DNA of 64,000 nucleotides, taken from positions 992,001 to 1,056,000 of the forward strand of contig CP053031.1 of the NCBI GenBank assembly GCA_021496505.1, given 5' to 3'. The notes beneath the pieces were generated by a model. That model was not told the DNA's origin. It saw only the letters and a list, made by a program, of their open reading frames with translations, and did not search any database. The position numbers and the translations under genes were made by a program. Source of the stretch: Thermoleophilia bacterium SCSIO 60948. Its GTDB lineage: Bacteria > Actinomycetota > Thermoleophilia > Solirubrobacterales > 70-9. Numbering within the stretch: the stretch's first letter is position 1; each line of letters begins with the position of its first letter. Of this stretch, positions 14,948 through 23,490 are shown piece after piece.

Positions 14948-16147
14948 ATGGCAGCTACGGAGCCGATCGAGGCGATCAAGGAGCGGATCGAGGAAGTCGA
15001 GGTCGAGGAGGCCGATCGCGAGGTCTCCGCGGGTGAGGCGATCCTCGTCGACGTTCGTGAGCGCAACGAGTGGGACGCCGGCCACGTCGAGGCCTCGACG
15101 CTCGTGCCGCAGGCCGAGGTCGCCGACCGGCTCGCCGAGGTCGCTCCCGACCAGAGCCAGCGCGTGCTCTTCCTCTGCGCGTCGGGCAACCGCTCGGCCC
15201 GCGCCGCCGACCTCGCCTCCGAGCTCGGCTACACCGACGTCGCCTCCGTGCGCGGCGGGTTCACGACCTGGTCGGATCGCGGTCTGGCGACCGTCGAGCC
15301 CGAGGGTCTGACGCGCGATCAGCGCATGCGCTACTCGCGCCACACGCTGCTCGACGAGGTCGGGGTCGAGGGTCAGCTCAAGCTGCTGAACGCCAAGGTC
15401 CTGCTGCTCGGGGCCGGTGGCCTCGGCGCGCCGACCGCGCTCTACCTCGCCGCCGCCGGCGTCGGCACGATCGGCATCGTCGATGACGACGTCGTCGACG
15501 AGTCGAACCTCCAGCGCCAGGTCATCCACTCGACGAAGACCGTCGGCGAGGCGAAGACCGCCTCGGCCAAGCAGGCGATCAACGACCTCAACCCGGACAT
15601 CGAGGTCATCGAGCACAACACGCGGCTCGACGCTTCGAACATCCTCGACCTGATCGAGCCCTACGACATCCTCGTCGACGGCGCCGACAACTTCCCGACC
15701 CGATACCTGCTCAACGACGCGTCGGTGCGGCTTCGCAAGCCCGTCGTCTCGGCGTCGATCCTCGGCTTCGAGGGCCAGATCTCGACCTTCGTCCCCTACG
15801 AGGGTCCCTGCTACCGCTGCCTGTTCCCGACGCCGCCGCCGCCCGAGCTCGCTCCGAGCTGCGGTGCCAACGGAGTCCTCGGTGTCATGGCCGGGGTCAT
15901 GGGGCTCTTCCAGGCCAACGAGGTCATCAAGCTGGTCGTCGGCATCGGCGAGCCGCTCGTCGGGCGCCTGGTGCTCTACGACTCGCTCGGAACCCGTCTC
16001 ACCGAGCTCAAGGTCCGCCGCGATCCGGAGTGCCCGATCTGCGGCCCGGACGCGCCGGAGATCGACGAGTCCGAGATGGGGCAGTTCCCCGACTACGAGC
16101 TGTTCTGCGGCGCCCCGGCGCGCGAGGAGACTCCGCAGGCCGTTTGA
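14948..16147 (+). CDS. rhodanese-MoeB fusion: sulfur-carrier adenylyltransferase/sulfurtransferase
   Basis: A 399-residue protein with an N-terminal rhodanese domain (residues about 25-118, active-loop Cys C77 in CASGNRSARA) followed by a full E1-like ThiF/MoeB domain (from about residue 125). The ATP loop is LLGAGGLGAP and the zinc cysteines lie in GPCYRC and ECPICGPD. Such enzymes adenylate the C-terminal Gly-Gly of a ubiquitin-like carrier and turn it into a thiocarboxylate. The actinobacterial MoeZ has the two domains in the opposite order. The ATG at 14948 is preferred to a TTG at 14939 because CAGGAG lies at workable distance. The next gene, cysO, is its likely substrate. Confidence 0.9.
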   Translation: MAATEPIEAIKERIEEVEVEEADREVSAGEAILVDVRERNEWDAGHVEASTLVPQAEVADRLAEVAPDQSQRVLFLCASGNRSARAADLASELGYTDVASVRGGFTTWSDRGLATVEPEGLTRDQRMRYSRHTLLDEVGVEGQLKLLNAKVLLLGAGGLGAPTALYLAAAGVGTIGIVDDDVVDESNLQRQVIHSTKTVGEAKTASAKQAINDLNPDIEVIEHNTRLDASNILDLIEPYDILVDGADNFPTRYLLNDASVRLRKPVVSASILGFEGQISTFVPYEGPCYRCLFPTPPPPELAPSCGANGVLGVMAGVMGLFQANEVIKLVVGIGEPLVGRLVLYDSLGTRLTELKVRRDPECPICGPDAPEIDESEMGQFPDYELFCGAPAREETPQAV

Positions 16148-16197: not shown

Positions 16198-16476
16198 ATG
16201 ACCAAGGTGAAGATCCCACCCGTACTGCGCTCGCGCACCGATGGCGCCTCGGAGGTCGAGGCCTCCGGTTCGACCGTCGGCGAGGTCCTCGCCGACCTCG
16301 CCGAGCGCCACCCCGATACCCGCGAGCAGCTGTTCTCGGGCGAGGGTGAGCTGAACCGCTACGTCAACGTCTATCTCAACGACGAGGACGTCCGCGTGCT
16401 CGGCGGGCTCGACACCGCCGCCTCTGAGGGCGACACGGTCGTGATCCTGCCGGCGATGGCCGGCGGTGAGCGCTAG
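16198..16476 (+). CDS. cysO: CysO-like sulfur carrier protein with a GGER tail
   Basis: A 92-residue ubiquitin-fold protein (MoaD/ThiS superfamily). It matches mycobacterial CysO in its start (MTKVKIPPVLRSRTDG), the NRYVNVYLNDEDVR segment and the ending TVVILPAMAGG. CysO carries a C-terminal thiocarboxylate that provides sulfur for cysteine made by CysM. Unusually, two extra residues, Glu-Arg, follow the Gly-Gly, so the protein must be trimmed before it can be adenylated. The Mec-type protease at 23095 is the obvious candidate. The codons ggc ggt gag cgc tag at 16462-16476 are unambiguous. Confidence 0.88.
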   Translation: MTKVKIPPVLRSRTDGASEVEASGSTVGEVLADLAERHPDTREQLFSGEGELNRYVNVYLNDEDVRVLGGLDTAASEGDTVVILPAMAGGER

Positions 16477-21336: not shown

Positions 21337-21394
21337 CGGCTCAGAGCGGTGCGATCCTCGCAGGCCGGGCGCTTCGCGGAGCGAGCCACCCCAC

Positions 21395-21400
21395 TACAAT
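21395..21400 (+). promoter_or_regulatory. -10 box of cysM
   Basis: TACAAT at 21395-21400, 10 bases before the ATG at 21411. It is the best -10 match near the gene. The transcript would have a leader of only a few bases. Confidence 0.5.
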
Positions 21401-21410
21401 TACTGAAGTA

Positions 21411-22376
21411 ATGACGGACTCGGTTCTCAACCGCCCGTGCGGGGGTCGGTACGGCAACGTCATCGAGGCGGTGGGCAACACGCCGCTCGTAGAGCTGCCG
21501 CGACTCGCTCCGCACCCCGGAGTGCGGATCTACGCCAAGCTCGAGGGCCGCAACCCGACGGGCTCGGTCAAGGACCGCGTCGCCAAGGCGATGATCGAGG
21601 CGGCCGAGCGCGAGGGCGCGATCGGCCCGGGCCAGACGATCATCGAGCCGACGTCGGGCAACACCGGGATCGCCCTGGCGATGATCGCGAGTCGCAAGGG
21701 CTATCCGATCAAGGTCGTCATGCCCGACAACGTCACCGCCGAGCGCACGCAGCTGCTCGAGATGTACGGCGCCGAGATCATCTTCTCCGAGGGCGCCAAG
21801 GGGTCCAACGGAGCCGTCGAGAAAGCGCTCGACATCGTCGAGCACGACAGCTCGTACTACATGCCCTACCAGTACGGCAACGAGGCCAACCCGGGCGCCC
21901 ACTACAACGGCACCGCGGTCGAGATCCTCGAGGAGCTCGAGACGGTCGACGCGTTCGTCGGCGGTCTCGGAACCGGCGGGACGCTGATGGGCAACGGGCG
22001 CCGGCTCAAGGAGGCCAACCCGGACTGCAAGATCGTCGCCTCCGAGCCGATGCAGGGCGAGCTGGTCCAGGGCCTGCGCTCGCTCGACGACGGCTTCATC
22101 CCGCCGATCATCGACCTGTCGGTCCTCGACCGGAAGATCATGGTCTCCAACCACGACGCGATCGTCTGGACCCAGAAGCTGCTGCGCGAGGAGGGCGTCT
22201 TCGCCGGCGTCTCCTCCGGCGCCATCGCCCGGGTCGCGAATCGGATCGCCGGCGAGATGGATGAGGGCAACGTCGTCTTCCTCGTCCCCGACGACGGCTG
22301 GAAGTATCTCTCCTCCGGCGTCTACACGAAGCCCGTCGAGGAGCTCGAGAGCGTCGATTCCACCGTTTGGTGGTAG
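21411..22376 (+). CDS. cysM: CysO-dependent cysteine synthase CysM (O-phosphoserine sulfhydrylase type)
   Basis: A 321-residue PLP enzyme of the cysteine synthase fold. The PLP lysine is K54 in NPTGSVKDRVAK; the substrate loop is EPTSGNTGIALAM. It resembles mycobacterial CysM more than CysK: the segment GLRSLDDGFIPP keeps the Arg (R223) that in the mycobacterial enzyme recognises O-phosphoserine, and the protein has the extended C-terminal tail ending VWW. It would use CysO thiocarboxylate as sulfur donor. The ATG at 21411 begins MTDSVLNRP; longer frames run into the divergent regulator. The alkD and mec genes follow. Confidence 0.92.
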   Translation: MTDSVLNRPCGGRYGNVIEAVGNTPLVELPRLAPHPGVRIYAKLEGRNPTGSVKDRVAKAMIEAAEREGAIGPGQTIIEPTSGNTGIALAMIASRKGYPIKVVMPDNVTAERTQLLEMYGAEIIFSEGAKGSNGAVEKALDIVEHDSSYYMPYQYGNEANPGAHYNGTAVEILEELETVDAFVGGLGTGGTLMGNGRRLKEANPDCKIVASEPMQGELVQGLRSLDDGFIPPIIDLSVLDRKIMVSNHDAIVWTQKLLREEGVFAGVSSGAIARVANRIAGEMDEGNVVFLVPDDGWKYLSSGVYTKPVEELESVDSTVWW

Positions 22377-23094: not shown

Positions 23095-23490
23095 ATGCGA
23101 ATCCGCCGCGACCTGCTCGACGAGATCATCGCCCACAGCCGCGAGGACGATCCGAACGAGTGCTGCGGCGTTCTCGCCGGTCCGGATGGTGTCGCCGACC
23201 GCGCGATCCGCGCCCAGAACTCGCGTCCGAGCCCGACCGCCTTCGAGATCTCCGGCCAGGACCTGCTGCGGATCTACCAGGAGACGAACGACGGCGAGGA
23301 CTTCGTCGCGCTCTACCACTCGCACACGCGCAGCGAGGCCTATCCCTCGCAGACGGACATCAACATGGCGCCGCGCTGGCCGGGCACCGTCTGGCTGATC
23401 TGTTCACTGGCCGAGGCCGAGCCCGTCATCCGCGGCTTCGAGATCGAGGACGGCCGGGTCACCGAGCTCGAGATCGAGCCGGTCGACTGA
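23095..23490 (+). CDS. mec: Mec-type JAMM metalloprotease acting on CysO
   Basis: A 131-residue M67 (JAMM/MPN) peptidase. The zinc and catalytic residues are E22 (NECCGVLAG), H75 and H77 (YHSHTRSEAYPSQTD), S85 and D88. Mycobacterial Mec cleaves cysteine from the CysO-cysteine adduct. Here it could also remove the Glu-Arg tail of the CysO precursor. It is close to mycobacterial Mec in length and motif spacing. It follows alkD by 11 bases and is followed by an overlapping zinc-ribbon gene. Confidence 0.9.
   Translation: MRIRRDLLDEIIAHSREDDPNECCGVLAGPDGVADRAIRAQNSRPSPTAFEISGQDLLRIYQETNDGEDFVALYHSHTRSEAYPSQTDINMAPRWPGTVWLICSLAEAEPVIRGFEIEDGRVTELEIEPVD

What the first reader, a model, noticed from the sequence alone, without database searches (positions are those of the whole stretch)
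16198..16476. CysO-like carrier ends in Gly-Gly-Glu-Arg, a precursor form
CysO/MoaD/ThiS carriers normally end in Gly-Gly, the residue that is adenylated. Here codons for Glu and Arg follow (positions 16468-16473). A tail after Gly-Gly blocks adenylation, so a protease must remove it. A precedent is QbsE of Pseudomonas fluorescens, whose Cys-Phe tail is removed by the JAMM protease QbsD. A Mec JAMM gene exists at 23095. Mec may thus both activate CysO and later release cysteine, giving one enzyme two steps in the cycle.
Basis: partly seen in the sequence, partly recalled or inferred. Interest (0 to 1): 0.8.

Follow-up and report, generated by a model that had tools for sequence, protein, structure and literature searches.

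The report
Removable tail on a sulfur carrier
This bacterium makes its small sulfur-carrying protein CysO with two spare amino acids after the Gly-Gly that must be free to work, and relatives show that such tails are common, change quickly and appear where a JAMM protease able to clip them off is present, so it is a fresh case of a known maturation step.

Summary
In detail: the ORF at 16198-16476 is a CysO-type carrier ending ILPAMAGG-ER-stop. The tail is not peculiar to this genome. Of 133 distinct orthologues, all keep PAMAGG, 109 carry residues after it (usually 1-2), and the tail string changed at least 89 times on their tree. Two features point to endoproteolysis at GG|X. Tails stay short (107/109 are 8 residues or fewer; about 13% expected by chance). 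The first tail residue alone is restricted (0/109 of P,V,D,L,I,F,Y,W,M,N,K against 35/129 at later positions). A JAMM gene (Mec, 23095) is conserved in the same neighbourhood. Two related families without any JAMM have no extended carriers (0/47, against 26/48 in families with it). Across Actinomycetota all 44 genomes with a MoaD-MoaE fusion (Gly-Gly internal) have Mec. It is not new in kind: QbsE/QbsD, PtmS2/PtmS1 and DRJAMM on MoaD-MoaE are published, and (from memory) HcyS/HcyD, a JAMM acting at both steps. Added here: evidence that the tail drifts and is constrained only at P1', a CysO-CysM fusion, and the suggestion that one Mec matures CysO, MoaD and ThiS precursors.

The parts
16198..16476 (+). 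cysO (CysO-A): beta-grasp sulfur carrier, 92 aa, ends PAMAGG-Glu-Arg-stop
   Evidence: model with core pLDDT above 90 and residues 89-92 below 50, i.e. a flexible C-terminus
16462..16467 (+). codons of Gly89-Gly90, the predicted cut and adenylation point
   Evidence: PAMAGG invariant in 133 of 133 distinct orthologues
16468..16473 (+). codons of the Glu-Arg tail (propeptide)
   Evidence: tail of variable length and sequence in relatives; same-length tail RR in the closest relative L055
14948..16147 (+). rhodanese-ThiF fusion, E1-like adenylating/sulfurating enzyme, 50 bases upstream of cysO
   Evidence: Rhodanese 17-108, ThiF 127-361 of the translated stretch; next to cysO in nearly all relatives whose contig covers it
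21411..22376 (+). cysM-type cysteine synthase
   Evidence: PALP and cysKM family; 66-81% identical neighbour of cysO in relatives; start
23095..23490 (+). mec: JAMM/Prok-JAB metallopeptidase, E22...H75-S76-H77-x7-S85-x2-D88
   Evidence: PF14464 E=7.5e-22; E, H, H, S, D invariant in 22 orthologues; PfJAMM1 and Rpn11 among solved relatives

Best explanation
The gene encodes a precursor of the sulfur carrier CysO. A JAMM metallopeptidase, most likely the Mec encoded 6.6 kb downstream, cuts the Gly90-Glu91 bond and exposes the Gly-Gly end. The neighbouring rhodanese-ThiF enzyme then adenylates and thiocarboxylates it, CysM adds the sulfur to its serine-derived substrate to give CysO-Cys, and Mec cuts again after Gly-Gly to release cysteine. 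The tail has no conserved message. Because Mec must cut after Gly-Gly anyway, stop-codon loss or small indels are nearly neutral as long as the tail is short and its first residue is accepted. Shown here: the tail, its drift, the P1' restriction, the gene neighbourhood and the co-distribution with JAMM. Inferred: the cut itself, that Mec makes it, and the order of steps.
For: Invariant PAMAGG with tails of 0-8 residues (two longer) in 133 distinct orthologues; CysO-B 15/70 tailed. Tail presence changed at least 17 times and the tail string at least 89 times on the CysO-A tree. P1' never P,V,D,L,I,F,Y,W,M,N,K (0/109 vs 35/129 at later tail positions, Fisher 4e-11, set chosen after seeing the data; within-tail permutation of representatives 0 vs 8.0 expected, p=5e-5; proline alone 0 vs about 11 expected from downstream DNA). 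Restriction at one position only fits a single endoproteolytic cut rather than stepwise carboxypeptidase trimming. Short tails: 107/109 are 8 or fewer against 12.8% expected. Conserved cluster rhodanese-ThiF/cysO/cysM/mec. Families without any Prok-JAB gene: 0/47 carriers extended; families with Mec: 26/48. MoaD-MoaE fusions in Actinomycetota: 44/44 genomes in 15 families have Mec, against 145/174 genomes with unfused MoaE. Published precedents: PMC6006322, PMC8832034, PMC3227635 for Mec on CysO-Cys.
Against: No experiment on this organism. Most CysO-B and 24/133 CysO-A have no tail although Mec is present, so a tail is not needed. G065 (97% complete) has CysO-A with a one-residue tail and no JAMM found; its cysO lies 1.3 kb from a contig end and two genus mates have Mec, so a gap is likely but not proven. 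The family contrast rests on only two JAMM-free families. Another peptidase could make the cut.
Confidence: 0.75

Rival explanations
1. The tail is removed, but by another peptidase (a different endopeptidase or a carboxypeptidase that stops at Gly-Gly); Mec only releases cysteine.
For: MoaX of M. tuberculosis is cut after Gly-Gly by a protease not identified in the paper. G065 has a tailed CysO and no JAMM found.
Against: Restriction at P1' but not further along argues against stepwise trimming. JAMM-free families have no extended carriers (0/47). JAMMs are the known enzymes for this cut.
Confidence: 0.15
2. The tail stays on and CysO-A no longer carries sulfur (a decaying or repurposed copy); CysO-B next to thrC does the work.
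For: The genome has a second CysO (51% identical, PAVAGG-Ala, L001).
Against: CysO-A core and PAMAGG are strictly conserved with E1, cysM and mec beside it. Tail and no-tail forms interchange at least 17 times, which would not be expected if the tail ended function. CysO-B also carries one extra residue.
Confidence: 0.06
3. Sequencing error: one base lost from GGC GGC TGA turned the true stop into Glu-Arg.
For: GGCGGTGAGCGCTAG is one base away from the GGCGGCTGAGC read in tail-free relatives.
Against: L055, the closest relative, has an in-frame tail of the same length ending in the same CGC codon, and 109/133 relatives have tails.
Confidence: 0.02

Closest known systems
QbsE/QbsD of the thioquinolobactin pathway (Pseudomonas)
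   Same: Carrier with residues after Gly-Gly that a JAMM peptidase removes (cited in PMC6006322)
   Different: Siderophore pathway; here cysteine pathway genes surround the carrier, and the tail drifts
PtmS2/PtmS3 and PtmS1 of Streptomyces platensis (PMC6006322)
   Same: Actinobacterial carriers capped after Gly-Gly (MV and C); the JAMM gene ptmS1 is clustered with ptmS2 and needed for product in vivo
   Different: Tails of one species only; drift and P1' restriction not analysed in the text read
[quoted passage not shown] content from memory, paper not held)
   Same: One JAMM removes the C-terminal residue of the carrier and later releases the amino acid: exactly the two-step role proposed
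   Different: Homocysteine with MetY instead of cysteine with CysM
M. tuberculosis CysO/CysM/Mec/MoeZR
   Same: Same four activities; Mec hydrolyses CysO-Cys (PMC3227635)
   Different: Mtb CysO ends in Gly-Gly; here the E1 has an N-terminal rhodanese domain and CXXC motifs, unlike MoeZR
DRJAMM on MoaD-MoaE of Deinococcus; MoaX of M. tuberculosis
   Same: Gly-Gly inside a longer chain is freed by cutting after the second Gly
   Different: MoCo pathway fusion rather than a short tail
Ubiquitin-like precursors of eukaryotes and archaea (SUMO; Caldiarchaeum ubiquitin with Rpn11)
   Same: Short tails after Gly-Gly removed before activation (PMC6043591 abstract; SUMO from general knowledge)
   Different: Sulfur transfer, not protein tagging, is expected here

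Membership tests
CysO-type sulfur carrier (ThiS/MoaD family) | beta-grasp ThiS-family domain, closest to CysO | tested here: met
   PF02597 E=6.7e-15; 3dwg CysO E=1e-22; model
CysO-type sulfur carrier (ThiS/MoaD family) | Gly-Gly at the mature C-terminus | tested here: inconclusive
   Gly-Gly invariant but followed by Glu-Arg; maturity depends on a cut not yet shown
CysO-type sulfur carrier (ThiS/MoaD family) | Linked to E1, CysM and Mec | tested here: met
CysO-type sulfur carrier (ThiS/MoaD family) | Thiocarboxylate and CysO-Cys formation | not testable with these tools
   needs mass spectrometry
Capped carrier with JAMM partner (QbsE/QbsD type) | Residues after Gly-Gly | tested here: met
Capped carrier with JAMM partner (QbsE/QbsD type) | JAMM peptidase with complete E, H, H, S, D set encoded nearby | tested here: met
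Capped carrier with JAMM partner (QbsE/QbsD type) | JAMM removes the tail | not testable with these tools
   inferred from co-distribution and P1' restriction
SAMP1 (NCBIfam NF041918) | score above curated cut-off | tested here: met
   61.4 bits against 60, a marginal pass; the partner is below the desampylase cut-off (73 against 130), so the name is not a safe guide to function

The most novel reading that the evidence does not exclude
In Actinomycetota one Mec-type JAMM is the common maturase of several sulfur carriers: it trims CysO tails and separates MoaD-MoaE, ThiS-ThiG and CysO-CysM fusions after Gly-Gly, besides releasing cysteine, and would be the unidentified MoaX protease of M. tuberculosis. 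Its presence is what lets carrier C-termini drift and fuse.
Probability: 0.45. Interest if true: 0.65.

Novelty: new member of a known kind. Interest (0 to 1): 0.5.

Why it matters
It turns an apparent oddity into a general rule that can be tested: where a JAMM is present, a carrier need not end at Gly-Gly, and only the residue just after the cut is constrained. That gives a natural substrate survey of Mec (accepted P1': A, R, S, G, Q, C, E, T, H), suggests a candidate for the open question of which protease cuts MoaX, and warns annotators that carriers not ending in Gly-Gly are not broken genes.

Tried and rejected
Sequencing error or a one-base deletion as the source of the tail: rejected because relatives, including the closest, have tails. 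Conserved meaning of Glu-Arg: rejected (89 changes of the tail string). Stepwise carboxypeptidase trimming: disfavoured by restriction at P1' only. Termination context as cause of the P1' bias: disfavoured because the bias also holds in tails of 3-8 residues, where P1' is not next to the stop. ThiS as a tail-free control: failed, since 30 of 69 ThiS are fused to ThiG and 6 have a short tail; JAMM-free families were used as control instead. Papers on QbsE (PMC1855785), HcyS (PMC3089676) and Sasaki 2014 (PMC4082789) were not held.

Full report
1. Observation. The ORF 16198-16476 encodes 92 residues ending ILPAMAGGER. Alignment with M. tuberculosis CysO (3dwg) ends at the second Gly, which is the last residue of that chain. 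The window lies in a 3.42 Mb single-contig genome; its near relatives are named Solirubrobacterales, Thermoleophilaceae and Conexibacter.

2. Surroundings. A rhodanese-ThiF enzyme (14948-16147) ends 50 bases before cysO. cysM is at 21411-22376 and mec at 23095-23490. The same set lies around cysO in relatives. Mec has the complete JAMM signature, invariant in 22 orthologues, and its solved relatives include PfJAMM1 and Rpn11.

3. Tails in relatives. Among 133 distinct CysO-A genes PAMAGG is invariant and 109 have a tail: 41 of one residue, 47 of two, 19 of three to eight, two longer. Parsimony on the tree of tail-free sequences needs at least 17 changes of presence and 89 changes of tail string. 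The second CysO of these genomes (CysO-B, next to thrC in this genome) has tails of 1-3 residues in 15 of 70.

4. Constraint. If a stop is lost, the next in-frame stop is expected far away (0.017 stops per codon downstream), so only 13% of tails should be 8 residues or fewer; 107 of 109 are. The first tail residue is A, R, S, G, Q, C, E, T or H in all 109. Eleven other residues make up 27% of later tail positions and 36% of downstream codons, yet never occur at P1'. That set was defined after seeing the data, so the safer tests are the within-tail permutation on representatives (hydrophobic residues 0 against 5.6 expected, p=0.0005) and proline, chosen on protease logic (0 against 11 expected from downstream DNA, p=7e-6; within-tail permutation alone p=0.06). 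One constrained position next to Gly-Gly fits one endoproteolytic cut.

5. Comparison with and without JAMM. Mec is in 184 of 215 good genomes of the class. Families coded f6 and f8 have no Prok-JAB match over cut-off in 23 genomes; all 47 carriers read there end exactly at Gly-Gly. In 18 genomes of Mec-bearing families outside the order, 26 of 48 carriers continue after Gly-Gly, as tails or fusions (Fisher 2.7e-10, not corrected for phylogeny: only two JAMM-free families). In 396 Actinomycetota genomes, MoaD-MoaE fusions without a stop occur in 44 genomes of 15 families, all with Mec; among 174 genomes with unfused MoaE 145 have it (p=9e-4). ThiS is fused to ThiG in 30 of 69 distinct ThiS of the order. 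One genome (G129, L392) has CysO fused to CysM after PAMAGG. One possible exception is G065: tail present, no Mec found, cysO near a contig end, two genus mates with Mec.

6. Mechanism. Best reading: precursor, cut by Mec after Gly90, adenylation and thiocarboxylation by the rhodanese-ThiF enzyme, CysO-Cys by CysM, second cut by Mec. Release of cysteine from CysO-Cys by Mec is published for Mycobacterium. The bond is the same kind of Gly-X bond in both steps, so an enzyme that must accept CysO-Cys would also be expected to accept short tails. This explains why tails drift. All steps here are inferred from sequence. The predicted structure has a confident beta-grasp core and a flexible end at residues 89-92, so the bond would be accessible.

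7. What is known. Capped carriers and their JAMM partners: QbsE/QbsD and, in Streptomyces, PtmS2/PtmS3 with PtmS1, whose deletion abolishes the product. DRJAMM cuts MoaD-MoaE. A 2006 genome survey already proposed that JAB peptidases free fused ThiS or MoaD. The two-step JAMM is known, from memory, for HcyD. So the finding is a new member of a known kind. The drift, the P1' restriction, the multi-carrier co-distribution and the CysO-CysM fusion were not found in the papers read, and most subscription journals are not in the library.

8. Verdict. Observation confirmed; interpretation partly supported; interest moderate.

Noticed in passing
L002 (own genome, about G000:C1:493.2-494.5 kb, minus strand): One ORF appears to join MoaD, MoaE and MoaC; the MoaD Gly-Gly is internal (VSGG-AGELL).
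   Followed up: partly
L392 (G129:C23:18684 on): CysO fused to a CysM-like synthase directly after PAMAGG (PAMAGG-SVFPPNVCRGGGDILGAIGGTPLVEL).
   Followed up: partly
ThiS loci: 30 of 69 distinct ThiS in the order are N-terminal parts of ThiS-ThiG fusions.
   Followed up: yes
window 21388-21413 and the same place in relatives: A conserved box GCTACACTTTCTGAAGTAATG (or GCTATATTCCGTGAAGTAATG) lies at the start of cysM in most relatives; looks like a -10 element of a leaderless transcript plus GAAGTA.
   Followed up: no
L430 (G181:C47): A MoaD-like carrier (LPAVSGG) runs on into an unrelated domain beginning DDAIELLLGTKKGLVVLRGERDG.
   Followed up: no
L431, L434, L436 (family f9): A different carrier ending YFMGGG or YYMGGG carries 2-16 extra residues and lies about 1 kb from mec.
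   Followed up: partly
G524, G495, G515 and others of family f23: MoaD and MoaE lie in one frame separated by a single in-frame stop codon, a half-way state to fusion.
   Followed up: no
window 14948-16147: The E1 has its rhodanese domain at the N-terminus and two CXXC motifs, whereas mycobacterial MoeZR, the CysO partner there, has the domain at the C-terminus and is described as lacking these motifs.
   Followed up: partly
window 16198-16476: NCBIfam would name this CysO 'ubiquitin-like small modifier protein 1' (61.4 bits against a cut-off of 60), probably a misleading name.
   Followed up: no
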